Shown: positions 7,250-18,577 of the stretch, piece by piece | How the letters are laid out: the number at the start of each line of letters is the position of its first letter | How positions within the stretch are numbered: the first letter of the stretch is position 1 | NCBI GenBank assembly: GCA_017534835.1 | Contig: JAFXVT010000034.1 | Span: 1-38,290, forward strand | Source of the DNA: Ruminococcus sp. | GTDB taxonomy: Bacteria; Bacillota; Clostridia; Oscillospirales; Ruminococcaceae | DNA length: 38,290 nucleotides | Direction of reading: 5' to 3' | Made by a program: the position numbers and the translations under genes | The notes under the pieces: model-generated | Databases searched by the model: none | The model's input: only the letters and a program-made list of their open reading frames with translations | Told to the model about the DNA's origin: nothing

Positions 7250-8553
7250 ATATATGGGAAAATATGAAAATGGCGCTGAGCTCGATACTCGCAAACAAGC
7301 TCCGTTCGCTGCTCACGATGATAGGAATAATCATCGGTATCTGCGCCGTTATCACGATAACCACACTCGGAACGACCCTGCGTTCGACTATCACTACAAC
7401 GCTCAATTCGCTCGGCTCGAATCTTATTGGAGCATATGTCACCACAAGAACAACCAGCTACTATGACAGCGTGAACGTGGAATACACTCCCGATGACTTC
7501 ATAACCTACTCAACTGTCGAGCGGCTCATTGAAAAATATCCCGAGCTCCGCATAGCTGAGGAGAACACTGTCGGCAGCGGAAATACAAAGAATTCCCTCG
7601 GCAAGCAGGTGAACGTTACTCTCGTAGGCGGCTACAACGGTACACTTGACCAGAACGGTTCAAGAATTGTTTCCGGACGTATGCTCACTATGGACGACGT
7701 TTCGATGAAGAAATACACCTGCGTCGTAACGAATATCTTCGTAAGACAGTATTTCAAGAACAACGAGGAGCCGGTCGGACAGGTGATAAAGCTGAATTCC
7801 GAAAACGGTATCGCATATGAGTTCACCATCGTCGGCGTCTGCACTTACAATTCGCTGATAAACGGTGCATTCGGCGGCAATGAGGAAGATATGGCAACAC
7901 CGGTATATATCCCCGACTCCATAGCAAGACAGATCCAGGGCAGCTACGGCGAGGAATATATGCAGGGCTGGGTATTCTCCTATGACCCCAAGACCGACGG
8001 AAAGACCGCAAAGCAGCACCTCAAGTCATTCTTTGAAGAGGAGTATGCAGCGAACAAGAATTTCACGGTAGAGATCATCAGCAATCAGGATACGATGATG
8101 ATAATCGACATAATCATCAACGTCATCACGATATTCGTAGCTGTCATCGCTTCCATTTCGCTCATCGTCGGCGGTGTCGGCGTAATGAACATAATGCTCG
8201 TAAGCGTAACGGAGCGTACACGTGAGATAGGTATACGAAAGGCACTCGGTGCAAAGAAGTCGACGATAAAGCTCCAGTTCGTAACTGAGGCGATAATAAT
8301 GTGTCTTATCGGCGGACTCATCGGTGTTCTGATAGGACTTTTCAACGGCTTCATCGCAGGCGTTATCGCGAACCTGATAATCGGCTCGATACCGGCGGCA
8401 AAGCAGGTGCTCGGCACGATAGTGATGACACCTTCACCGCTCGCAATAATCATATCTATCATCTTCTCGATGATAACCGGCGTATTCTTCGGATACTATC
8501 CGGCAAGCAAGGCTGCGAAGATGAATCCGATAGACGCTCTCAGATACGACTGA
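7246..8553 (+). CDS. MacB-type ABC transporter permease (FtsX-like)
   Basis: A 435-residue protein with the MacB plan: an N-terminal transmembrane helix (about residues 18-42), a large extracytoplasmic domain (about 50-280), then three transmembrane helices near 285-310, 340-370 and 390-420. The diagnostic FtsX-family stretch GGVGVMNIMLVSVTERTREIGIRKALGAKK follows the second helix, and the protein ends PASKAAKMNPIDALRYD, as MacB permeases do. It forms the membrane part of the exporter with the adaptor at 5023 and the ATPase at 6458. A strong terminator lies 37 nt downstream. Confidence 0.94.
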   Translation: MNIWENMKMALSSILANKLRSLLTMIGIIIGICAVITITTLGTTLRSTITTTLNSLGSNLIGAYVTTRTTSYYDSVNVEYTPDDFITYSTVERLIEKYPELRIAEENTVGSGNTKNSLGKQVNVTLVGGYNGTLDQNGSRIVSGRMLTMDDVSMKKYTCVVTNIFVRQYFKNNEEPVGQVIKLNSENGIAYEFTIVGVCTYNSLINGAFGGNEEDMATPVYIPDSIARQIQGSYGEEYMQGWVFSYDPKTDGKTAKQHLKSFFEEEYAANKNFTVEIISNQDTMMIIDIIINVITIFVAVIASISLIVGGVGVMNIMLVSVTERTREIGIRKALGAKKSTIKLQFVTEAIIMCLIGGLIGVLIGLFNGFIAGVIANLIIGSIPAAKQVLGTIVMTPSPLAIIISIIFSMITGVFFGYYPASKAAKMNPIDALRYD

Positions 8554-8590
8554 TAGACCAACGCTTATAATTTCCTCAATATATACAAAC

Positions 8591-8638
8591 AAGCTGCCAT
8601 TCTCCGGACATACCGGAAATGACAGCTTTGTTTTTTTT
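8591..8638 (+). terminator. Intrinsic terminator of the MacAB-like operon
   Basis: An interrupted stem pairs AAGCTG, CAT and CCGG on the left with CCGG, ATG and CAGCTT on the right, and is followed by tg and eight T residues (8631-8638). Confidence 0.9.
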
Positions 8639-8657
8639 CTCCATTCGCTCAGCTTTT

Positions 8658-8970
8658 CAAGGGCTCTGCCCTTGACCCGGTCAAGGCTCTGCCTTGACAA
8701 TCCGCTGGGGCTCTGCCCCCGTCCCCGGCAAGGGGCGCACCCCTTGCAACCCGGTTTCGCTGCCGCTCGTTTCACTCGCTGACTGACTTCAAACGGCTCA
8801 GATGTCGTCGCCGCGGTCACCAATATATCGGGAGAATGCGGATGATTCGGCGACACGGTAAGTCTTTCGGAAACGGTGAGCGAGTTTACGAGCGTCAACG
8901 AAGCTGGGTTGCAAGGGTCTGCGACCCTTGCCAGGTTCCAAGGACAGAGTCCTTGGGGCAGAGCCCTTGC
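8658..8970. repeat. Long near-palindromic intergenic repeat, copy 2
   Basis: Same architecture and orientation as copy 1: left-arm hairpins (AAGGGCTCTGCCCTT, AAGGCTCTGCCTT, GGGGCTCTGCCCC, AAGGGGCGCACCCCTT), the core with CGCTCGTTTCACTCGCT and AGCGAGTTTACGAGCG, then right-arm hairpins. It lies between two convergent transcription units, each of which has its own terminator, so the element is not needed as the terminator of either gene. Confidence 0.85.
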
Positions 8971-8997
8971 ATAAGAATATTCGGGATTTTTACACAC

Positions 8998-9029
8998 AAA
9001 AAGGGCGTAAGAAAACAAATCTTACGCCC
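8998..9029 (-). terminator. Intrinsic terminator of ackA
   Basis: Read on the minus strand, GGGCGTAAG (9029-9021) pairs with CTTACGCCC (9011-9003) and is followed by five T residues (9002-8998). It lies 21 nt past the ackA stop codon. Confidence 0.9.
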
Positions 9030-9050
9030 AGTGTTTTTATTATCCGGTGA

Positions 9051-10250
9051 TTACTTGGAGATGAGCTCGAGAGTGTCTCTTGCGATGAGGAGCTCTTCGT
9101 TAGTGGGAACGATCCATACCTCGATCTTGGAATCGGGAGTAGAGAGCTTGGTGAGCTTGCCTCTTACAGAGCGGTTGAGCTCCTTGTCGATCTTGATGCC
9201 GAAGTAGTCCATATCGGTGCATACGCCCTCGCGTACCTCCCATGAATTCTCGCCGATACCGCCTGTGAAGAGGATAGCGTCGATACCGTTCATAGCAGCA
9301 GCGTATGAGCCGATGTACTTCTTTATCTCGTAAACGAGCATATCGGAAACGAGCTGAGCTCTCTTGTTGCCCTCGTTGGCAGCAGACTGAACATCGCGGT
9401 TGTCCGAGCCGACGCCGGAAACACCGAGGAAGCCGGACTTCTTGTTCATATACTCGCTCATCTCAGAGGGAGTGAAGCCATGCTTGTCCGCAACGAAAGT
9501 AACAGCAGAGGGGTCAACAGCACCTGTACGAGTGCCCATAACGACACCGTCGAGGGGAGTGAAGCCCATAGAAGTATCAACAGACTTGCCGCCGTCAACA
9601 GCAGTGATGGAAGAGCCGTTTCCGAGGTGGCATGAAACTATCTTGAGGTCTTCAACGTTCTTGCCCATAGCCTCAGCGAGAGCCTTAGAAACGAAGCGGT
9701 GAGATGTACCGTGGAAGCCGTACTTTCTTACGTGGTATGTCTCATAGTCGCTGTATGGGAGACCGAACATAAATGCCTTGGGGGGCATTGTCTGGTGGAA
9801 GGCAGTATCGAATACAACGACCTGAGGAACGTTTGCGGGGATAACGCTCTTGCATGCGCGGAGAGCGAGAGCGTGAGCGTGGTTGTGTACGGGAGCAAGC
9901 TCGCGGAGCTCGTCTATCTTGTCGATTACCTCGTCAGTAACGAGAACGGACTTGTCGAACACGTCAGCGCCCTGTACTATACGGTGACCAACAGCAGAGA
10001 TCTCGTCCATGCTGTCGATGACCTTTGCATCGCTCTTTGTGAGAGCCTCAACGAGCTTCATGAAAGCCTCTGTATGGGTCGGGAAAGCGCAGTCCTCATC
10101 AAGAGTTCTGCCGTCAGCAGCCTTGTGAGCGATATGACCGTCGATACCGATACGGTCGCAGTTGCCCTTAGCGAGTACGCTCTCATCGTCCATATTGATG
10201 AGCTGGTACTTGAGTGATGAGCTTCCTGCATTAACAACTAAAATAAGCAT
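9051..10250 (-). CDS. ackA: Acetate kinase
   Basis: Acetate kinase converts acetyl phosphate and ADP to acetate and ATP, the energy-yielding end step of acetate fermentation, in the cytoplasm. The 399-residue length is standard. Visible signatures are VVNAGSSSLKY at the N-terminus (phosphate-1 loop, Asn7), GHRIVQG, SCHLGNGSS (catalytic His in HLGNGSS), GTRTGAVDP, and FTGGIGENS near the C-terminus. The usual partner pta is not adjacent. GAAAGGAAT precedes the ATG. It is transcribed alone from a promoter at 10291-10319 and ends at a clear terminator. Confidence 0.97.
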   Translation of the reverse strand: MLILVVNAGSSSLKYQLINMDDESVLAKGNCDRIGIDGHIAHKAADGRTLDEDCAFPTHTEAFMKLVEALTKSDAKVIDSMDEISAVGHRIVQGADVFDKSVLVTDEVIDKIDELRELAPVHNHAHALALRACKSVIPANVPQVVVFDTAFHQTMPPKAFMFGLPYSDYETYHVRKYGFHGTSHRFVSKALAEAMGKNVEDLKIVSCHLGNGSSITAVDGGKSVDTSMGFTPLDGVVMGTRTGAVDPSAVTFVADKHGFTPSEMSEYMNKKSGFLGVSGVGSDNRDVQSAANEGNKRAQLVSDMLVYEIKKYIGSYAAAMNGIDAILFTGGIGENSWEVREGVCTDMDYFGIKIDKELNRSVRGKLTKLSTPDSKIEVWIVPTNEELLIARDTLELISK

Positions 10251-10283
10251 ATCAGGTGATTCCTTTCAGATATTATTTTTTGC

Positions 10284-10319
10284 GTATAACATTATACCAC
10301 ATAATGCAGCAAAAAGCAA
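10284..10319 (-). promoter_or_regulatory. ackA promoter with a palindrome over the -10
   Basis: On the minus strand, TTGCTT (10319-10314), a 17-nt spacer and TATAAT (10296-10291). The -10 is embedded in a perfect palindrome GTATAA-CA-TTATAC (10284-10297), which could be an operator or just a by-product of the -10 sequence. Confidence 0.7.
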
Positions 10320-10397
10320 GGGTTCGCGGCGAAAAATTTACACCTTCCCCGACTTTGCCGTCATACGCCGCTTATATCCCGGAAACAGCTTTGCAGC

Positions 10398-10991
10398 TCA
10401 GAAGTTGTTTATGACGAACTCATACTTGCTCACATCAAAGGTATCGCGTTTCACGCCGTCCTGCACGAGCCATTTCCGCACAGTCGCAGACGTATCGGCA
10501 AGCCTGATATTGCGGTGCTTTGCCCATTTTTTCACCTTATCGGTGTATCTGCGGACATTCTCCGCTCCGTATTCGCTGATAAGCTTCTGAGTATCATCTT
10601 TTTTCTCAGAGGGCGGAGCCGTGCTTTCTTTCGTATTTTCTTTAGTATTTCTTTTAAAAGGTGTATCTGTCACGGCTGAATGAACGGTTCTGTCAGGGCT
10701 GACAGTAGCCGTACCCTCAAAGCTGACAGTACGTGCAGAATGCGAGCTGTCAGAGCTGACGGTAATATAGCCGAGACGTGCGAGTTTTGCAGCGGCTCTG
10801 TCGACGCTCGAAACGCTGAGCCTGCACTCCTTTGCTATCGCGGACGATGAGATCTGTATGCTTTTGCGGTGGAACCCGGCGGTCTGACGAATGATGAAGA
10901 GCATTATCCTGAGCTCTGTTCCGGTAAGACCGCTTCTGTACAGGTCCTCTATCACTTCATTCGGTACGGCTGTGAAATTTGCTTTCAGCAT
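10398..10991 (-). CDS. Phage-type replication protein with N-terminal winged helix
   Basis: A 197-residue protein whose first ~80 residues match the phage replication protein O-like / replisome-organiser N-terminal domain: FTAVPNEVIEDLYRSGLTG, then an LRIMLFIIRQTAGF helix and an ISSSAIAKECRLSVSSVDRA helix-turn-helix. A Ser/Thr/Lys-rich linker follows. The C-terminal 60 residues are helical and charged (VRKWLVQDG), as in phage and plasmid replication initiators. Such proteins bind origin DNA and recruit helicase. The start is set at 10991 because AAAGGAGG lies 6 nt upstream; an in-frame start 48 nt earlier has no such site. No other phage genes are nearby, so it looks like a remnant or domesticated gene. 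Confidence 0.72.
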   Translation of the reverse strand: MLKANFTAVPNEVIEDLYRSGLTGTELRIMLFIIRQTAGFHRKSIQISSSAIAKECRLSVSSVDRAAAKLARLGYITVSSDSSHSARTVSFEGTATVSPDRTVHSAVTDTPFKRNTKENTKESTAPPSEKKDDTQKLISEYGAENVRRYTDKVKKWAKHRNIRLADTSATVRKWLVQDGVKRDTFDVSKYEFVINNF

Positions 10992-10996
10992 TGTAT

Positions 10997-11016
10997 CGCC
11001 TCCTTTATAAGAGGCG
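10997..11016 (-). promoter_or_regulatory. Hairpin over the ribosome binding site of the replication-like gene
   Basis: On the minus strand CGCCTC (11016-11011), an 8-nt loop and GAGGCG (11002-10997) form a perfect 6-bp stem. The Shine-Dalgarno AAAGGAGG of the gene starting at 10991 has its GAGG inside this stem, so the fold could limit translation. The regulatory role is inference. Confidence 0.45.
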
Positions 11017-11085
11017 TGGAAAAAGCCCATTGTCAACACGTACCCGTTGATTATAGGAGAAATTTTTTTATTTTAACGAATCCTC

Positions 11086-11337
11086 TTACTTGAAGAACGA
11101 GAAGCCCTTCTTCTCATACGGCTCGCACTCGTGTGAGAGGACCTTGTAGCCGTCCGCCTCGATGAGCTGTGTGAGCTTTGCATAGTCAGGCTCTGTTTCG
11201 GCGATTATCTCGGTCGTGCCCTTCTTATGCGACGAGCTCACCTTGCTTACGTTGAAATTATTGCGGACAGTATCATTCACGTGTGCCTCACAGTGTCCGC
11301 ACATCATACCGTCTATTTTGAGTGTTATCTTGTACAT
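11086..11337 (-). CDS. Small heavy-metal-associated (CopZ-like) protein
   Basis: An 83-residue cytoplasmic protein with the HMA ferredoxin-like fold signature: MYKITLKIDGMMCGHCEAHVN at the N-terminus, with the metal-binding pair in MCGHC (Cys13 and Cys16). The strand order continues to a late ADGYKV turn. Such proteins carry Cu(I) or similar soft metals to P-type ATPases or repressors. No copA-like ATPase or csoR/copY repressor is next to it. The start at 11337 follows AGGAGGTG with good spacing. Upstream in-frame residues would come from the promoter and repeat and are discarded. An unusual FSFFK tail ends the protein. Confidence 0.88.
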   Translation of the reverse strand: MYKITLKIDGMMCGHCEAHVNDTVRNNFNVSKVSSSHKKGTTEIIAETEPDYAKLTQLIEADGYKVLSHECEPYEKKGFSFFK

Positions 11338-11351
11338 ATAAATGCACCTCC

Positions 11352-11387
11352 TGTTATCATTGTATAACATATCTGTTATTTTGTCAA
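11352..11387 (-). promoter_or_regulatory. Promoter and operator-like repeats of the HMA gene
   Basis: On the minus strand TTGACA (11387-11382), 17 nt, TACAAT (11364-11359). Between and around the two boxes are three alternating half-sites: TGTTAT (11352-11357), ATAACA (11364-11369) and TGTTAT (11374-11379). These make the palindrome ATAACATATCTGTTAT across the spacer. A repressor bound here would block polymerase. The regulator is unknown. Confidence 0.7.
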
Positions 11388-11730
11388 GGTCTCTGCAAGG
11401 GCGCTGCCCTTGACCCGGCAAGGGTCATAGACCCTTGCAACCCGGTTTCGCTGCCGCTCGTAAACTCGCTGACTGTCTTCAAACGGCTCAGATGTCGTCG
11501 CCGCAGTCACAGAAATTTAAGGCAACGAAATATCGGGAGAATGCGGATGATTCGACGACACAGTAAGCCATTGGGAAACGGTGAGCGAGTTTACGAGCGT
11601 CAGCGATACTGGGTTGCAAGGGGTGCGCCCCTTGCCGGGGACGGGGGCAGAGCCCCAGCGGATTGTTAAGGCAGAGCCTTGACCGGGTCAAGGGCAGCGC
11701 CCTTGCAGAGTCCAGAGACAGAGTCTCTGG
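11385..11730. repeat. Long near-palindromic intergenic repeat, copy 3 (arms swapped)
   Basis: The core (about 11441-11612) is in the same orientation as in copies 1 and 2. The outer arms are exchanged: the short arm with AAGGGTCATAGACCCTT is now on the left, and the long arm with AAGGGGTGCGCCCCTT, GGGGCAGAGCCCC and AAGGCAGAGCCTT is on the right, each as the reverse complement of its counterpart. An extra CCAGAGACAGAGTCTCTGG hairpin closes the right end. The element begins inside the -35 region of the HMA gene and ends 8 nt before the helicase stop codon. Confidence 0.82.
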
Positions 11731-11738
11731 AGGGGGCG

Positions 11739-13976
11739 TTATCCGAGAGCGGCTGCCCATTCGCGGACGCGCTCCTTCATACCGTCGATGTCGAGGATAC
11801 CGTAGGCGAAGCCCTTGCGGACGAGCTCGGGCGGTACGTACTGGTCGTATTTCTCGAACATGGGTACTTCGTTCGGATAGACGAGGTCGGTCGGTGGGAA
11901 GTCCGCTTGTGCTTCCTCGGCGAGGATACGGAAGAACTCCGCCGGCTGTACCTTCATCGTGAACTGGATATAGTAGGGACGAGCGGAGTCCATACCGCGC
12001 AGCCCGAGCCTGTCAGCGCAGCGGAGCTTGAGAAAGCGCTCCATCGCGAAGAAAGCATACGTCCCGAGCCACGGGAAAAGCACCCACATATTGCCGCCGA
12101 GACAGATGAGCGGCGATTCGGTCAGACCGGAATTGCGTGCGGAGCTTCGCCCCTGTGCGAGCCTGAGAACGGCATTTTTCATCAGGTAAGGATAGCTCTT
12201 GTCCTCGCGCAGCACCTGCCGCATCCTGAGCAGGATCTTCGTGTTGATGTCGCCGGGACAGTCGCCGAAATACGCCGGCACCTTGCCCTTTATCTTCTCG
12301 CAGTAGACGAGGCGGCGCTTGTGGTCTATCTCCTCGACTACCCAGACGTGTCCGGCTATCGCGAGCTTTTCACCGACAGGCGGAGGACTCACGACAGTTC
12401 CGAGCTCCTGCGAATCCCAGCGGACGGTGTACTCCTCGTTCTCCTGAAAGACCGCATAGAACCGGAAGCTGTTTATGACTCTCTCTCCTGCGAGCCCCAC
12501 GATGAGACCGCCCTCCTCGGTGCGCTGGATATGCTCGATCTCGAGGAGGTGGCGGAGCAGTACGCGGAAATCGTCCTGTGAGATGCGGTGGAAGTATTTC
12601 AGTGACAGCACGCGCGACGCCAGCTGAGCCGGAGTCAGCTCGCCGTTTGAAGCGAGGGTGCTCATCGTCTGATGATAAAGCAGCGAGAAGGGGAGACGGT
12701 CGAGCTTTGGCGGCTCTACCCAGCGTTCCTCGACGTAGACCTGTACGAGAGCGATGCCCTGCAAAAGCTTCCACGGAACTGTTTCCGGCAGCATAGAGCG
12801 CGGCTCAGGGAGCTCCTCGCGGATAACGAACCACATCTCAGGCGGAAGGTCGCGTCGTCCGGTGCGTCCCATACGCTGAAGGAAGGACGAAACGGTGAAC
12901 GGCGCGTCCACCTGAAAGGCACGTTCGAGCCTGCCTATGTCGATACCGAGCTCAAGGGTCGCGGTGGTGCAGGTGGTCATAAAGACGTCCTCGTCCTTCA
13001 TCGCAGCCTCGGCGGTCTCGCGGTAGGCGGCGGAGAGGTTTCCGTGGTGGATAAGGAAGCGGTCGGGCTCGTGATTCGCCTCGCAGTAGGAGCGCAGCGT
13101 AGTCGTGACAGCTTCGCACTCCTCGCGCGAATTCACGAAAACAAGGCATTTCTTGCCGCGTGTGTGCTCAAAGATGTAGCCCATTCCGGCGTCTGCGTGG
13201 TCGGGTGCGGAGTCCGTTTTCTCGTCGAGTACGGGGAGCGCCTCGACGTCCGCGCCGCCCTCGGGGGCATTCTGCTGCGAGACGTAGAAATGCTCCATCG
13301 AGAGCCGCCATTTGCTGCCCTTCGCCTCGATACGGGGAATGACGGTGCCTCGGTCGGTGCCCGATGCGAGGAACTCGCCGGTCGCGCGGAGGTCGCCGAT
13401 AGTCGCAGAAAGCCCTATCCTGCGCGGTTTTACGCCTGCGAGCCGCGAGAGGCGCTCAATGAGGCAGAGAGTCTGACCGCCGCGGTCGCCGCGCATCAGC
13501 GAGTGTACCTCGTCGATCACGATGAAGCGGAGGTCGCCGAAGAGCTTCGGTATGAGTGCGTGCTTGCGAAGCAGCATAGCTTCGAGGGATTCGGGCGTTA
13601 TTTGCAGTATGCCGGACGGGTTTTTCAGCATCTTCGCCTTGTGGGACTGTGCGGCGTCGCCGTGCCAGTGCCAGACGGGAATATCCGCCTCTTCGCACAG
13701 CTCGGTCAGGCGCGTGAACTGGTCGTTTATCAGAGCCTTCAGCGGACCGATGTACAGCGCTCCGACGGAACGCGGCATATCCTCCGAAAACAGCGTGAGT
13801 ATGGGAAAAAATGCAGCCTCGGTCTTGCCCGATGCGGTCGATGCTGAGAGCAGCACGTTCTCGTCCGTGCAGAAAATAGCCTCGCCGGCAGCTGCCTGTA
13901 TCGCACGGAGCGACTCCCAGCCGCTGCGGTAGATGAAATCCTGAATGAACGGCGCATAGCGGTCGAATACGTCCAT
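11739..13976 (-). CDS. Lhr/BrxHI-like superfamily II DNA helicase
   Basis: A 745-residue DExH helicase. Motif I is SASTASGKT (K51), motif II IDEVH (D155-H158), motif III GLSATIG (S190-T192), and motif VI QRMGRTGRR (367-375). The order and the DEVH box match the Lhr-like branch, including BrxHI of type 2 BREX systems. About 350 C-terminal residues beyond the two RecA domains form an Lhr-type accessory region with a winged-helix-like part (about 430-500). It should translocate on DNA (or DNA/RNA hybrids) using ATP. AAGGGGG before the ATG overlaps the end of the ATPase gene, 9 nt away, so the pair is tightly coupled. It is the last gene of the trio that starts at 16890. Confidence 0.88.
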   Translation of the reverse strand: MDVFDRYAPFIQDFIYRSGWESLRAIQAAAGEAIFCTDENVLLSASTASGKTEAAFFPILTLFSEDMPRSVGALYIGPLKALINDQFTRLTELCEEADIPVWHWHGDAAQSHKAKMLKNPSGILQITPESLEAMLLRKHALIPKLFGDLRFIVIDEVHSLMRGDRGGQTLCLIERLSRLAGVKPRRIGLSATIGDLRATGEFLASGTDRGTVIPRIEAKGSKWRLSMEHFYVSQQNAPEGGADVEALPVLDEKTDSAPDHADAGMGYIFEHTRGKKCLVFVNSREECEAVTTTLRSYCEANHEPDRFLIHHGNLSAAYRETAEAAMKDEDVFMTTCTTATLELGIDIGRLERAFQVDAPFTVSSFLQRMGRTGRRDLPPEMWFVIREELPEPRSMLPETVPWKLLQGIALVQVYVEERWVEPPKLDRLPFSLLYHQTMSTLASNGELTPAQLASRVLSLKYFHRISQDDFRVLLRHLLEIEHIQRTEEGGLIVGLAGERVINSFRFYAVFQENEEYTVRWDSQELGTVVSPPPVGEKLAIAGHVWVVEEIDHKRRLVYCEKIKGKVPAYFGDCPGDINTKILLRMRQVLREDKSYPYLMKNAVLRLAQGRSSARNSGLTESPLICLGGNMWVLFPWLGTYAFFAMERFLKLRCADRLGLRGMDSARPYYIQFTMKVQPAEFFRILAEEAQADFPPTDLVYPNEVPMFEKYDQYVPPELVRKGFAYGILDIDGMKERVREWAAALG

Positions 13977-13985
13977 ATTTCCCCC

Positions 13986-15311
13986 TTATATCTCGAATTC
14001 AGCGAATTCGTCGCCGGTGCTTTCCTGTGAGACCGATGACGGCATATCCTCTGACATTATGAACTCGCTGATATTTATCTGCGGATTCTGGTAAACGATG
14101 TCGAGCAGCTCGATGAAATCGCGTATCACCTCGCGCGGCGTGATGTGGCTGCCGGAGCCGATACGTGAGAATTCGAGCCGTATGAAGCTCACGAGGTCTT
14201 CCTGCGTGATAACGCGCTGATAGCCGAAGAGCCCGGCGTGTATATCCGCGAGCTTTTCGGTCAGGACGAGCATTTCCTCATTCGTGAGCGGAGCAAGGTG
14301 AATGACAGGCGCGAGCATATCCTTTACGCCCTCGCGCCCGAACCTTCCCTCCGCGAGCCTCGAACGCAGCGCCTCATAGCTGTAGACTCCGCGGCGCGTA
14401 TCCTCGATACACTGGGGAGTTCCGCCCATAATGATGCCGAGGTGCTTAGCCTTGCCCTGAAGCGTGTCGTTGTACATCGTAAGAATTTTTTCGTAGTTGT
14501 ACTGGCGCGTTATCGCGTTGGGTATCTTGTAGATGTTGACGAGCTCGTCGATGAGCACGAGCAGTCCGCCGTAGCCGGCACGCCTGAGGAAAGCGGCGAA
14601 AAGCTTGATATATTCGTACCAGTCATCGTCAGTGATGATGATATTCACGCCGAGCTCGTTTTTCGCCTCGGTCTTGGTGGTATATTCGCCGCGGAACCAC
14701 TTCACTACCTTTGCCTTGCTCTCGTCGTCACCGGAGGCATATGAGCGGTAGTAAACTGTCAGCAGCTTCGCGAAATCAAAGCCGTGCACCATTTCGTTCA
14801 GCGCGGAGATGACCTCGAATATCCTCCGCTCGACAGCGTCTGCGAACTCCGGCGAATCGGCGGCAAGTCCGGTCGCGGCGGCAGTTTCGGTCTGTACCGA
14901 GCTTATCCAGCGGTCGAGAATGAGCGTGAGAGCGCCGCCGTCGGGACGTGTTTTTGTCGACATATTGCGGATAAGCTCCTTGTACGTTGCAAGTCCCTGA
15001 CCCTTCGTGCCCTGCAAGCGGCGCTCGGGGGAGAGGTCAGCGTCCACAACGACGAAGCCCCTGTCCATAACGTGAGCGCGGATAGTCTGCAAGAGGAAGC
15101 TTTTACCGCTTCCGTACTTGCCGACGATGAAACGGAACGAAGCTCCGCCGTCCTCGATTATGTCAACATCGTGGAGGAGGGCGTCGATCTCGGTCTCGCG
15201 TCCGACGGTGATGTACGGCAGACCGATACGCGGTACAACGCCGCCTTTGAGCGAATTTATCACAGCCGAGGCGATACGCTTCGGGATAGCAGGTCGGTTA
15301 TTTTCTGGCAT
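13986..15311 (-). CDS. BrxD-like P-loop ATPase (DUF2791 / BREX ATP-binding family)
   Basis: A 441-residue AAA-like ATPase with Walker A GKYGSGKS (residues 64-71), Walker B GLLVLIDEL, and the downstream GTPQCIEDTRRGVYSYEALRSR block that is characteristic of the BREX BrxC/BrxD ATP-binding family. In type 2 BREX, BrxD sits beside the Lhr-like helicase BrxHI, the same adjacency as here. The start is placed at 15311 because GAGGTG lies 6 nt upstream; in-frame ATGs at 15347 and 15332 overlap the previous gene. The stop of the TerB gene is 13 nt before this start. A role in loading or controlling the helicase is inferred. No BREX methylase, PglZ or BrxC gene is in the window. Confidence 0.85.
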   Translation of the reverse strand: MPENNRPAIPKRIASAVINSLKGGVVPRIGLPYITVGRETEIDALLHDVDIIEDGGASFRFIVGKYGSGKSFLLQTIRAHVMDRGFVVVDADLSPERRLQGTKGQGLATYKELIRNMSTKTRPDGGALTLILDRWISSVQTETAAATGLAADSPEFADAVERRIFEVISALNEMVHGFDFAKLLTVYYRSYASGDDESKAKVVKWFRGEYTTKTEAKNELGVNIIITDDDWYEYIKLFAAFLRRAGYGGLLVLIDELVNIYKIPNAITRQYNYEKILTMYNDTLQGKAKHLGIIMGGTPQCIEDTRRGVYSYEALRSRLAEGRFGREGVKDMLAPVIHLAPLTNEEMLVLTEKLADIHAGLFGYQRVITQEDLVSFIRLEFSRIGSGSHITPREVIRDFIELLDIVYQNPQINISEFIMSEDMPSSVSQESTGDEFAEFEI

Positions 15312-15324
15312 TTTGTCCACCTCA

Positions 15325-16890
15325 TCATACATATTCTTGCAGCTCATCGGCGTAATCCTCGATTATCCCGGGGACATCGGCTGAGCAGTCTATCACGGTA
15401 TCGCCGAAGAAGTCGAAGAGCTTTTCATTTATACTGTCCGCGAGCAGCGACGGCATTTCGCCGACTTCACGCGCCGCGGAAGCCCAGTCTCCGCCGCTCA
15501 GCAGAGCTTGCAGGAAGACTTTTTCATTTGCGGTCAGCGGCGACGCGGCAGCATTGTCCGGAGCAGGCTCAGTTACGGGCTCGGGAGCAGGCGAGAGCGT
15601 TTTGCCGGGCGAGGCTGCGGCGTCCTGCGGAACAGCTTCATTGCCGCGGTCGGCAGCCGTATCCGGTGCGGCGCAGCTTTCAGGTTCCTCATCGACTATG
15701 AGCTTGTCGCGCGTGACATCGGCAGCGGCGCGGATACCTGCTATCTTCGAGAGGTCTATCTCGATATTCATCGCCTTTTTGCGGTTCTTTTCGGCTTCGA
15801 GAGCGTCGAGCTCCTTCTTTATCAGGTCCGTTATCGTCTTTGAGACCTCGCCGGGACGCAGCTTATAGCGGAAATCGCATCGCTCGCGGAGCTGGCAGTC
15901 GAGCGTGCGCATCATCTCGCCGAGCTGCTGATTACGTGTACGGTTGCCGTAGTAGCGGCTGCACCGCCATACACCGTTGCGGCAGGTGTAGGTGTGTATC
16001 GGGTCGAGCTCGTAGTCGGTCGAGCGGCTGGGCTGTCTGTCGTAGAAAACAGCGAGCTCGAACAGCTTGCAGTTCATTTCGGTGCGGCGCCCGAAGAGCT
16101 TCTCACAGAGGGGATTTTTCCTGTGCGAGCGGAAAAATGCGGAAATGCTGCGGAATACGCGGACTGCGGCTTCGCGGAAGCCGTCGGGGTCGGAGATGTA
16201 GTAGCGCGAACGCTCGAACGGATAGCCGCAGAGCGTTGAAATGGCGGAAAACAGCTCTTCATCGGGAGTCGTCTCCCATTCCGTAAGCTTCACGAGTGCG
16301 TGGTCATAGACGAGCTCGGGAATGTCGGAAACGAGCGCCGGGTCGAGCTCCTCATAGACGCACAGGTCAACTGCCCAGCGGTTGAGATGACGGGTGAGCT
16401 CGGGGTCGTCCGCGCCGTAGACCGCGGCGAGCTGACGGAGACGTTTTATGCCGCTTTCGGGCGAATCTATGCCGATGCCGTTTATCATTTCGTATGCGTG
16501 CATATAGATGAAGGACTTCGGAGCGTAGGGAAAAACTCCCTCGCGCACCTGCCTGCGCCACGAGAAATAGCCGCAAAGCTGTTCCGTATCAAGGTCGCGG
16601 TAGGTGGGATAGAACTTGACGAGCTCGCCGCCGAAATCATAGACGTCGGTGTAGTCCTCCATAAATTTGCCCTGCGTGTAGAAGAGCCAGGCGGAGGTCT
16701 TCCAGTAAGCCTCGGGAGTGTATGCGAGCGCCTTCATTTCCTTTATTTTCTGCGGAGTACCGGACGTTTTTATCTGAGAGGCGCGCTTGATTATCGGCTG
16801 GTCGGTGTAGACCTTGTCGCGGAACGCACGGCTCCCGAGGAGCTTTTCGTCGCTGAGTATGCTGTCGAGTATGTCTTTCACGTCGGACAT
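15325..16890 (-). CDS. TerB-N / TerB-C domain protein
   Basis: A 521-residue protein. The region around residues 50-260 matches the TerB N-terminal domain: YWKTSAWLFYTQGKF, LCGYFSWRRQVREG and SFIYMHAYEMINGIG are its landmarks. A TerB-C-like region begins with MNIEIDLSKIAGIRAAADVTR (about residue 370), runs through an acidic Ala/Pro-rich linker, and closes with LLADSINEKLFDFFGDTVI. Comparative-genomic surveys of tellurite-resistance (Ter) systems link TerB-N/TerB-C proteins to an ATPase and helicase in a predicted DNA-processing complex. The TerB alpha-helical metal-binding domain itself was not recognised between them. GGAGG lies 7 nt before ATG 16890. It leads the three-gene operon and has a good promoter. 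Confidence 0.83.
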   Translation of the reverse strand: MSDVKDILDSILSDEKLLGSRAFRDKVYTDQPIIKRASQIKTSGTPQKIKEMKALAYTPEAYWKTSAWLFYTQGKFMEDYTDVYDFGGELVKFYPTYRDLDTEQLCGYFSWRRQVREGVFPYAPKSFIYMHAYEMINGIGIDSPESGIKRLRQLAAVYGADDPELTRHLNRWAVDLCVYEELDPALVSDIPELVYDHALVKLTEWETTPDEELFSAISTLCGYPFERSRYYISDPDGFREAAVRVFRSISAFFRSHRKNPLCEKLFGRRTEMNCKLFELAVFYDRQPSRSTDYELDPIHTYTCRNGVWRCSRYYGNRTRNQQLGEMMRTLDCQLRERCDFRYKLRPGEVSKTITDLIKKELDALEAEKNRKKAMNIEIDLSKIAGIRAAADVTRDKLIVDEEPESCAAPDTAADRGNEAVPQDAAASPGKTLSPAPEPVTEPAPDNAAASPLTANEKVFLQALLSGGDWASAAREVGEMPSLLADSINEKLFDFFGDTVIDCSADVPGIIEDYADELQEYV

Positions 16891-16923
16891 TTTCACGCCT
16901 CCATTTCGTTATCTTTACCCTTC

Positions 16924-16952
16924 ATTATAGCACACATTTTAAGTAATATCAA
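16924..16952 (-). promoter_or_regulatory. Promoter of the TerB-BrxD-helicase operon
   Basis: On the minus strand TTGATA (16952-16947), a 17-nt spacer and TATAAT (16929-16924), 33 nt upstream of the TerB-N start. It would drive the whole trio. Confidence 0.85.
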
Positions 16953-17042
16953 GTACACGCGGAGAAAACTTCCTGTGCGCAGATCTGTGCCGTATAAAAA
17001 AACCGAGCCGTTTAAGTACGGTACGTATAAAGAAGTTTTACG

Positions 17043-17079
17043 CCATAGTATTTCTGATGTAAGGTCAGAAGTACTATGG
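17043..17079. repeat. Long inverted repeat upstream of the VOC gene promoter
   Basis: CCATAGTA-T-TTCTGA pairs with TCAGAA-G-TACTATGG around a 7-nt loop (17058-17064). This is 14 paired positions with one T/G opposition that would be a wobble pair in RNA. It lies 9 nt before the -35 box. No T-run follows on either strand, so an operator or remnant of a mobile repeat is likelier than a terminator. Confidence 0.6.
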
Positions 17080-17087
17080 AGTTTCTA

Positions 17088-17116
17088 TTGACAATGCAGC
17101 GGTGCCGTGCTATAAT
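17088..17116 (+). promoter_or_regulatory. Promoter of the VOC-family gene
   Basis: TTGACA (17088-17093), exactly 17 nt, TATAAT (17111-17116): perfect consensus, 37 nt before the start codon. Confidence 0.9.
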
Positions 17117-17153
17117 TGTCACTAACATAAATCGGAATTTACTGGAGGACAAG

Positions 17154-17501
17154 ATGAAATGTAAAATTAATTCGCTTTATATCTGTGTGAAAGATATGAA
17201 TAGGGCTATTCAATTCTATGAGAACTTTTTTGAACAGTCTGTTACGGAGCGGGAAGACACATATAGTGTGTTTGATGTTAATGGATTCAGATATGGACTG
17301 TTTGCATACCTCACAGTCAACGAAGAGCATTCTTTCGGTAGTAATTGTTTGCCAAGCATCAGCTTTGAAAATATAGAAATACTTAAAGAGAAACTTGATG
17401 ATAAAGAGATATGCTTTCCTTTAACTAAAATCAAAGGGAACTGGGTGGCTGAATTTGTTGATTCGGAAGGAAATCATGTTGAAGTAACAGCACCAGAATA
17501 A
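17154..17501 (+). CDS. VOC-superfamily (glyoxalase/bleomycin-resistance fold) protein
   Basis: A 115-residue single-module vicinal-oxygen-chelate protein. The opening INSLYICVKDMNRAIQFYENFF and the closing AEFVDSEGNHVEV are the fold's usual first and last elements, the latter with the metal-ligand Glu position. Members include glyoxalases, antibiotic-binding resistance proteins and dioxygenases; the substrate cannot be read from sequence. GGAGG precedes ATG 17154. The gene is distinctly AT-rich, with codons such as aat, ata and ttt, unlike the GC-rich neighbours on both sides. With its own perfect promoter and flanking inverted repeat it is a likely recent acquisition. Confidence 0.85.
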   Translation: MKCKINSLYICVKDMNRAIQFYENFFEQSVTEREDTYSVFDVNGFRYGLFAYLTVNEEHSFGSNCLPSISFENIEILKEKLDDKEICFPLTKIKGNWVAEFVDSEGNHVEVTAPE

Positions 17502-17540
17502 CAAATTCTGATTTATTTTAGCATTCGTATAAAATGCAAT

Positions 17541-17570
17541 GCCCCGAAGCACTTTGAAATGCTTCGGGGC
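17541..17570. terminator. Bidirectional hairpin between VOC gene and cysE
   Basis: GCCCCGAAGCA (17541-17551) pairs exactly with TGCTTCGGGGC (17560-17570). It sits between the convergent VOC and cysE genes. T-tracts are short on both sides (aaaac on the right, so gtttt read on the minus strand before the stem; attgcatttt on the minus strand after it). Confidence 0.65.
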
Positions 17571-17617
17571 AAAACTTCTCTATAGGTATCTGTCTTACAG
17601 GCTCGGTTACGCAGTAT

Positions 17618-18577
17618 TCAGATGATGTAGAACCACGTTTCGTCCTGCGGGAGCTCGGTCTGCTGGACGGGTCTGTCGGACTTGAAATTGAAGCGCAGCT
17701 CGGGATTCTTAATGCTGACCCTCGCGCCGGCAGGTACGGACTTGGTGATAAATGCATTGCCGCCGATGACGGAATCTCTGCCGATGACGGTCTCGCCGCC
17801 GAGAATGGACGCTCCGGAATAGATCGTCACATTGTCCTCGATAGTGGGGTGACGCTTGCGGTTTTTGAGGAGCTGTCCGCCGCGTGTCGAGAGAGCGCCG
17901 AGCGTTACGCCCTGATATATCTTCACATTGTCGCCTATCTCGGTCGTTTCGCCGATAACTATGCCTGTACCGTGGTCGATGAAGAAGTATCTGCCGATGG
18001 AAGCGCCGGGGTGGATGTCGATACCCGTAACGCTGTGGGCGTGCTCGGTCATGATTCGCGGAATGAGCGGTACTCCGAGCAGGTGGAGCTCATGGGCGAT
18101 ACGGTTCACGAGAATAGCGAAAAGTCCGGGATAAGAGAAGATTATCTCCTCCTTGTTGAATGCAGCAGGGTCGCCCATAAATGCGGCTTCGACGTCGGTC
18201 GCGATGTAGTCCCTTATCTTCGGGAGCTTTTCGAGGAACTCGAATGTGAGCTCCTTTGCACGGTGTTCGATGAACTCCTGCTGAGCGTTCTCGTAGTCCG
18301 GATTATAGCGGAGAACAACGGAGATCTGCCTTGAGAGGTTGTGTATGATGTCCTCGAGCTGTACTGAGATATTGCTGCGGACGGTGTAGAGTCTGAAGCG
18401 GTCGTTTTTGTAGTAGCCGGGGTAGATGATGTTTCGCAGGCTCAGTATTATCGCGATGACCTTTTCCTTGTCGGGGTGGTCGAATGCGACGGTCTTGTCT
18501 ATCGTGCGGTCGTTGCCGTAGTCGCTGATGAGCGTGTCAACAAGCGAATTTATGCGGTTTTCAAAGCTTTGGGTCAT
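17618..18577 (-). CDS. cysE: Serine O-acetyltransferase (EpsC-type)
   Basis: Serine acetyltransferase makes O-acetylserine from serine and acetyl-CoA, the first step of cysteine synthesis. The C-terminal half is a left-handed beta-helix of hexapeptide repeats: HPGASIGRYFFIDHGTGIVIGETTEIGDN, then VTLGALS and YSGASILGGETVIGRDSVIGGNAF. Catalytic His residues lie in IDIHPGA and IDHGTG. The 319-residue length with a long alpha-helical N-terminal region matches the EpsC-like SAT family common in Clostridia and Bacteroidetes. The tail GARVSIKNPELR is retained. AAAGGAG precedes the ATG. It is a single-gene unit with its own promoter; no cysK is adjacent. Confidence 0.94.
   Translation of the reverse strand: MTQSFENRINSLVDTLISDYGNDRTIDKTVAFDHPDKEKVIAIILSLRNIIYPGYYKNDRFRLYTVRSNISVQLEDIIHNLSRQISVVLRYNPDYENAQQEFIEHRAKELTFEFLEKLPKIRDYIATDVEAAFMGDPAAFNKEEIIFSYPGLFAILVNRIAHELHLLGVPLIPRIMTEHAHSVTGIDIHPGASIGRYFFIDHGTGIVIGETTEIGDNVKIYQGVTLGALSTRGGQLLKNRKRHPTIEDNVTIYSGASILGGETVIGRDSVIGGNAFITKSVPAGARVSIKNPELRFNFKSDRPVQQTELPQDETWFYII

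What the first reader, a model, noticed from the sequence alone, without database searches (positions are those of the whole stretch)
11739..16952. Three-gene TerB-N/C + BrxD-like ATPase + Lhr/BrxHI-like helicase cassette outside any BREX locus
The genes are tightly linked (13 nt and 9 nt gaps), share a good promoter, and pair the two type 2 BREX accessory families (BrxD, BrxHI) with a TerB-N/TerB-C protein. No BREX methylase, PglZ or BrxC is present. BrxD-BrxHI adjacency and Ter-linked helicases are known from comparative genomics, but this compact trio has no established function. It could be a stand-alone DNA-processing or anti-phage system, with the TerB protein as sensor and the ATPase as helicase loader. 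The helicase and ATPase motifs are all intact, so the system looks active.
Basis: partly seen in the sequence, partly recalled or inferred. Interest (0 to 1): 0.85.

Follow-up and report, generated by a model that had tools for sequence, protein, structure and literature searches.

The report
Shango anti-phage system, clostridial form
These three genes are a complete copy of Shango, an already published bacterial defence system against viruses, here in a Ruminococcus-like bacterium; the one less ordinary feature is that its first gene changes much faster than the other two and lacks a recognisable TerB domain.

Summary
The trio is real, but its function is not unknown. Its proteins match the PADLOC Shango models: SngC 934 bits, SngB 650, SngA 240. 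Shango restricts phages in P. aeruginosa (PMC10250203). The genome has no PglZ and no second BrxC/D. Presence is patchy: SngB in 16 of 148 family and 50 of 125 genus genomes. Fifteen of 148 have all three genes; two more carry a subset near a contig end. SngB homologues lie on 692 plasmid records; 9 of 10 opened have the TerB_N gene beside them. Nearby genes show no clear excess of defence families. Two features I did not find in print: SngA of this lineage has TerB_N and TerB_C but no detectable TerB domain (54 of 54), and SngA is the most divergent of the three in 2016 of 2016 pairs, in one close pair inside a divergent stretch flanked by 91-98% identical DNA. Verdict: new member of a known kind, with a testable hint that SngA is the recognition subunit.

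The parts
16924..16952 (-). promoter-like site of the operon (TTGATA-17-TATAAT, extended TG)
   Evidence: 11 of 12 consensus matches; consensus match only
15325..16890 (-). sngA: TerB_N + TerB_C protein, 521 aa, no detectable central TerB domain
   Evidence: PADLOC SngA 240 bits, protein 29-521 to model 53-525 of 528 (numbered from GTG 16896); Pfam
13986..15311 (-). sngB: BrxC/D-type AAA+ ATPase, 441 aa (mechanical ORF starts at 15347)
   Evidence: PADLOC SngB 650 bits, model 4-439 of 439; PF10923 577 bits
11739..13976 (-). sngC: Lhr-like SF2 helicase, 745 aa
   Evidence: PADLOC SngC 934 bits, 3-737 to 5-717 of 720; best solved relatives by sequence are named ATP-dependent DNA helicase, 5v9x and 7lhl
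11086..11421 (-). flank: heavy-metal-associated (HMA) domain protein, also between sngC and ackA in relatives (start codon uncertain)
   Evidence: ORF match in L018, L020, L022 and nucleotide match in L021
9051..10250 (-). flank: acetate kinase, marks the site; present without Shango beside it in G019 and G135
17618..18577 (-). flank: serine O-acetyltransferase-like gene on the other side

Best explanation
This is a complete Shango (SngABC) anti-phage system; the confidence given is for that identity and role. Shown: family identity, intact motifs, operon layout, no PglZ in the genome, patchy presence. Inferred, at about 0.45: SngA, held to its partners by conserved N- and C-terminal parts, recognises a phage cue through its fast-changing middle; SngB, an ORC/Cdc6-like AAA+ ATPase, then loads or activates SngC on phage DNA; SngC translocates and unwinds it, blocking phage replication or exposing it to host nucleases, since no nuclease family was found in the three proteins.
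For: PADLOC SngA/B/C are the best PADLOC hits of the three proteins. Phage restriction by the same trio from PA14 in PAO1, 10-100-fold EOP change against many but not all phages (PMC10250203 passages). Walker and SF2 motifs near-invariant over 64 systems. No nuclease family among the Pfam hits of SngA and SngB at E<=1; for SngC the ResIII and Cas3-like C-terminal hits are helicase parts (that reading is recalled). All three genes in 15 of 148 family genomes, the two other positives ending near contig ends. SngA upstream of SngB in 80 of 80 loci and SngC near it in 76 of 80. Patchy in the genus, 50 of 125. SngB homologues on 692 plasmid records, 542 predicted conjugative; 9 of 10 opened have an annotated TerB_N gene beside it, the tenth has no annotation. 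SngA divergence about 3 times that of SngB/C.
Against: No experiment in this lineage. No clear excess of PADLOC families near the loci: about 14 of 126 near ORFs if same-named models are taken as one protein (strict upper bound 29) against at most 23 of 140 far ORFs. In G019, G094 and G122 the genes lie on different contigs, so operon linkage is not essential; L051 and L084 show no SngC nearby despite about 9-10 kb of downstream sequence. No record of the phage collection carries an SngB relative. The plasmid matches are all under 60% identity and most were not opened, so some may be BrxD. Sensor, loader and unwinding steps are inference; no structure could be obtained.
Confidence: 0.93

Rival explanations
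1. A host DNA-repair or genome-maintenance module that has been domesticated; phage restriction is a side effect. (Overlaps with the Shango identity, so the odds do not add to one.)
For: In the window it sits among ordinary genes; it keeps the HMA-ackA side in the window, L018, L020, L021 and L022; in G019 sngA lies between an ion-channel and a cation-efflux gene. SngC resembles Lhr-type helicases.
Against: Patchy within the genus, 50 of 125, and family, 16 of 148. Upstream flank unrelated in 6 of 8 close pairs that could be measured, although two of the six (L018/L021, L018/L022) share the ackA side. SngB homologues on conjugative plasmids. Published phage restriction.
Confidence: 0.1
2. A remnant or satellite of a type 2 BREX locus (BrxD + BrxHI left behind).
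For: SngB and SngC are homologous to BrxD and BrxHI.
Against: Scores to SngB/SngC far exceed those to BrxD/BrxHI (650 v 161, 934 v 410). No PglZ and no second BrxC/D in the genome. Strong PglZ (E<1e-50) in 8 of 148 family genomes, of which only G054 has Shango, on another contig; two more Shango genomes have weak matches, G108 below the cut-off and G122 just over it at 25.5 bits.
Confidence: 0.02
3. Shango acts by abortive infection: SngA is a toxic effector held in check by SngB-SngC and released on infection. (A rival for the mechanism, not for the identity.)
For: A review passage calls the TerB homologue of another system, Dionysus, a toxin (PMC12926258). Helicase-as-sensor logic is published for Hachiman (PMC12278908, abstract in listing).
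Against: [quoted passage not shown] No catalytic family matches SngA.
Confidence: 0.2

Closest known systems
Shango (SngABC), P. aeruginosa PA14 and enteric plasmids
   Same: Same three families; order A-B-C also on the Klebsiella plasmid copy, whose SngB is 42% and SngC 31% identical
   Different: SngA 521 aa instead of 769, no detectable PF05099 TerB, hardly alignable to the Klebsiella SngA (BLASTP E 0.008)
Type 2 BREX accessory pair BrxD + BrxHI
   Same: Homologous AAA+ ATPase and Lhr-like helicase, neighbouring genes
   Different: No PglZ and no second BrxC/D in the genome, PglW and PglX not searched; TerB_N/C partner instead; lower family scores
Hachiman, Druantia, Dpd helicase systems
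   Same: SF2 helicase in defence; SngC, BrxHI, DruE and DpdJ reported as one potential clade (PMC12278908 passage)
   Different: Different partners; no nuclease family in SngA or SngB

Membership tests
Shango | SngB ATPase model match | tested here: met
   650 bits, 19-453 to 4-439 of 439
Shango | SngC helicase model match | tested here: met
   934 bits, 5-717 of 720
Shango | SngA model match | tested here: met
   240 bits, 53-525 of 528
Shango | Three adjacent genes in one operon | tested here: met
   13- and 9-nt gaps, one promoter-like site; transcription not tested
Shango | PF05099 TerB domain in SngA: a domain annotation for Shango in one review table (PMC10952713), not one of the three PADLOC models and so not taken here as defining | tested here: not met
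   None in the window SngA at E<=10, none in 54 of 54 at E<=0.1; the middle part does not align to TerB in hhalign. Present in 5 of 6 long Pseudomonadota/archaeal SngA, one of them (L163) just under the curated cut-off; absent in L166, which is otherwise of the long kind.
Shango | Anti-phage activity | not testable with these tools
   Published for PA14, and cited there for E. coli
BREX type 2 | PglZ and BrxC present | tested here: not met
   No PF08665 match and no second PF10923 match in the genome
BREX type 2 | BrxD / BrxHI as best family match | tested here: not met
   Both come second to SngB / SngC

The most novel reading that the evidence does not exclude
In clostridial Shango, SngA is a hypervariable, exchangeable recognition subunit, comparable in role to HsdS of type I restriction (comparison recalled): conserved ends dock to a near-invariant SngB-SngC motor, while a rapidly changing middle that has lost or replaced the TerB domain sets which phages are sensed, and systems retarget by swapping sngA. 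Lowered from 0.30 to 0.25 on rechecking, because in the one clear pair the divergent stretch also covers DNA just upstream of sngA and another divergent stretch lies downstream.
Probability: 0.25. Interest if true: 0.55.

Novelty: new member of a known kind. Interest (0 to 1): 0.24.

Why it matters
It settles a finding that looked new as a published defence system and shows that it is common but patchy in Ruminococcus-like bacteria. The contrast between a nearly fixed SngB-SngC pair and a fast-changing SngA without a detectable TerB domain gives a concrete way to ask what Shango senses: swap sngA alleles between close relatives.

Tried and rejected
Universal housekeeping rejected: presence varies within genus and family. 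BREX remnant rejected, though no tree of SngB/SngC with BrxD/BrxHI was made.

Defence-island placement was looked for and not seen: two ORFs nearest on each side against the two farthest, in 42 loci with enough flank; 126 of 166 near and 140 of 165 far ORFs were scanned after random down-sampling to fit the residue limit, ORFs of 1200 aa or more left out, ORF calling mechanical. The answers give families, not distinct proteins. Near: 14 if models of one name are one protein, strict upper bound 29, of 126. Far: at most 23 of 140. A modest near-excess is therefore not excluded.

Positive selection on SngA: not shown. For the window against L018, L020, L021 and L022 dN in SngA is 4.7-6.4 times that in SngB or SngC, but dN/dS stays at 0.12-0.23. 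SngA is not the only fast gene: against L018 a C39-peptidase-like gene is as divergent (65%). In the pair L041/L042 the divergent stretch (73-78% from about 8.0 to 9.5 kb of L041) covers the first two thirds of sngA (8475-9995) and about 0.5 kb before it, the last third being 90%, and a further stretch at 17.1-18.8 kb is 79%. No donor was found: the two alleles remain each other's nearest.

Rows dropped before the pairwise counts: 17 of 81 (80 loci plus the window), because a gene was cut, missing or short; two short ones are named. Alignment A1 holds 54 of the 64 systems with all three genes full; it includes L064 (labelled Alistipes) and L090 (Deltaproteobacteria bacterium Smac51), so 'clostridial' is not strictly its make-up. 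A comparison of A1 with the single Klebsiella SngA aligned only one stretch at 34% probability; the stronger figures come from six long SngA together.

Structure prediction of SngA was asked for 16 times, each time answered that the machine was busy, so whether the middle of SngA is a diverged TerB fold stays open. Sequence search of solved structures found no convincing relative of SngB or SngA (one hit each near E=1).

Literature: the listings showed no paper that by title or start of abstract dissects SngA, its loss of TerB or its variability; only 40 of 158 papers with the word were listed. This holds for the held open-access library only. PMC10250203, PMC10952713, PMC11096173, PMC10221251, PMC12278908, PMC12839542, PMC12926258 and PMC13356809 were read as passages found by term, not whole. 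The E. coli report (Millman et al. 2022) was not seen; it is known here only as cited.
Full report
WHAT IS THERE. The minus strand of 16952-11739 holds three intact genes behind one good promoter-like site: a TerB_N/TerB_C protein (521 aa from ATG 16890, preceded by GGAGG), an AAA+ ATPase of the BrxC_BrxD family (441 aa from ATG 15311), and an Lhr-like SF2 helicase (745 aa). ATPase and helicase motifs are complete and near-invariant in an alignment of 64 systems.

WHAT IT IS. PADLOC holds models for exactly this trio. The proteins score 934 bits to SngC, 650 to SngB and 240 to SngA, against 410 to BrxHI and 161 to BrxD. That is Shango. Shango from P. aeruginosa PA14, a three-gene unit with TerB-like, ATPase and helicase proteins, lowered plating of many, not all, phages 10-100-fold in PAO1 and protected liquid cultures; an E. 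coli copy had been reported by another group (PMC10250203, passages).

BREX. The genome has no PglZ match, and its only BrxC/BrxD-family match is SngB itself. In 148 family genomes PglZ matches with E<1e-50 occur in 8, SngB in 16, and only G054 has both, on different contigs; the Shango genomes G108 and G122 have weak PglZ matches, the latter just over the cut-off. PglX and PglW were not searched.

DISTRIBUTION. In the 148 family genomes SngB (E<=1e-20) occurs in 16, SngA (E<=1e-10) in 17, SngC (E<=1e-100) in 15. Fifteen genomes have all three; G133 (A and B) stops at a contig end, and G080 has only A, close to the end of a 7.1-kb contig. In the genus 50 of 125 genomes have SngB, 33 of 68 of the better ones. 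In the named genome collection 350 stretches encode a relative of SngB; the best 80 were kept, by their titles mainly Ruminococcus and related Clostridia, with outliers such as Deltaproteobacteria bacterium Smac51 at 76% identity. SngA lies upstream of SngB in 80 of 80, at least in part, and SngC lies near in 76 of 80: L094 ends at the locus edge and L060 1.7 kb after sngB, while L051 and L084 show none in about 9-10 kb. Of 63 full loci apart from the window, the A-B gap is at most 37 nt in 59, and the B-C gap is between -4 and 61 nt in 44; L044 has the order A-C-B. Among plasmids 692 records match SngB, all under 60% identity and 542 predicted conjugative. Of ten opened, nine have an annotated TerB_N gene beside it and one has no annotation; the others were not opened, so some may be BrxD. 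No record of the phage collection matches.

SITE AND MOBILITY. The window, L018, L020, L021 and L022 carry Shango next to an HMA gene and acetate kinase and form one clade in a SngB+SngC tree. In two other members of the genus acetate kinase is present without Shango beside it (G019, G135). Among 20 pairs of loci with SngB at least 88% identical in DNA, the flank 2.5-4 kb upstream could be compared in 8: 2 are syntenic and 6 look unrelated (fixed offsets, so a large insertion could mimic this). Two of the six, L018/L021 and L018/L022, still share the ackA side. The unit thus both persists at a site and changes place.

NO DEFENCE ISLAND SEEN. The window's neighbours that were scanned are ordinary genes. 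Over 42 loci the nearest ORFs show no clear excess of PADLOC families over ORFs further out: about 14 of 126 (strict upper bound 29) against at most 23 of 140. This goes against the island expectation, but the bounds leave room for a modest excess. In G019 sngA lies on another contig than sngB-sngC, in G094 all three lie apart, and in G122 sngC lies apart. Of the few neighbours of these split genes that were scanned, most are ordinary, but an Abi_2 gene lies next to sngA in G094.

SNGA. Two features are worth a specialist's minute. First, SngA of this lineage has no detectable TerB domain: 54 of 54 aligned members (of 64 full systems) have TerB_N and TerB_C only, as do eight further SngA, two of Paenibacillus and six of unnamed family members, whereas 5 of 6 long Pseudomonadota or archaeal SngA have TerB in the middle. 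A profile comparison aligns the ends (78% and 95% probability) but not the middle to TerB (0.2%). Profiles were shallow and about 150 residues remain between the two domains, so a diverged TerB is not excluded. One review table lists PF05099 for Shango (PMC10952713). The PADLOC SngA model is itself only 528 positions long, so the short form is not foreign to it. Second, SngA changes fast: mean pairwise identity 41% against 81% (SngB) and 80% (SngC) in 64 systems, lowest in 2016 of 2016 pairs, with divergence about 3 times that of its partners.

ONE CLOSE PAIR. Between R. albus 8 (L041) and isolate RUG10798 (L042) the DNA is 95-98% identical over the first 7 kb and 91-98% from 10 to 11.8 kb, but 73-78% from about 8.0 to 9.5 kb, which covers the first two thirds of sngA and about 0.5 kb before it; the last third of sngA is 90%. 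Synonymous divergence is 0.87 in sngA against 0.18 and 0.12 in sngB and sngC. This looks like replacement of one allele by recombination. It is one clear pair, the divergent stretch is not limited to sngA, another stretch at 79% lies further downstream, and no donor was identified.

MECHANISM. Shown: families, motifs, linkage, patchiness. Inferred: SngB resembles BrxD, which is classed as an ORC/Cdc6-type AAA+ ATPase and proposed to load or activate its helicase partner (PMC12839542, passages); SngC is placed with BrxHI, DruE and DpdJ in a possible defence clade of SF2 helicases (PMC12278908, passage). No nuclease family was found in SngA or SngB. The most likely reading is that SngA recognises infection, SngB loads or switches on SngC, and SngC disrupts phage DNA replication. 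Abortive action by SngA is the main rival for the mechanism (0.2).

NOVELTY. A new member of a known kind. The hypervariable-SngA reading is the boldest that the data allow; the listings did not show it in print.

Noticed in passing
window 10398-11039 (-): An ORF with a phage replication protein O N-terminal / winged-helix match sits between the HMA gene and acetate kinase; no ORF matching it was listed at that place in L018 or L020.
   Followed up: partly
window 9051-18577: The block ackA-HMA-sngCBA is inverted relative to the neighbouring ABC exporter genes when compared with L018 and L020, and cysE lies in a different orientation relative to the sng genes, so the site has been rearranged.
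   Followed up: partly
G019 (L103, L104), G094 (L106-L108), G122 (L109, L110): Shango genes split over different contigs yet all three kept in the genome; sngA of G019 lies between an ion-channel gene and a cation-efflux gene, sngA of G094 next to an Abi_2 gene.
   Followed up: partly
L041, L042, L048, L061 between sngB and sngC: An ORF of 163-165 aa that looks like a P-loop kinase (label by eye) and, in three of these four, a small ORF of 52-60 aa inside the operon; L083 and L091 carry a different small ORF there.
   Followed up: no
L070 and L085 between sngB and sngC: 4.5 kb and 1.5 kb of extra ORFs, including a NUDIX-like one (label by eye), inside the operon; L044 has the order sngA-sngC-sngB.
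   Followed up: no
window 17088-17116 (+): A perfect 12 of 12 sigma-70-type promoter match with extended TG at the start of a small glyoxalase-like ORF that diverges from sngA.
   Followed up: no
L064: A contig labelled Alistipes carries a Ruminococcus-type Shango, 79% identical in SngB; transfer or mis-binning not resolved.
   Followed up: no
L165 (Mesorhizobium huakuii plasmid): An IS256-family transposase gene lies between two annotated TerB_N genes upstream of sngB.
   Followed up: no
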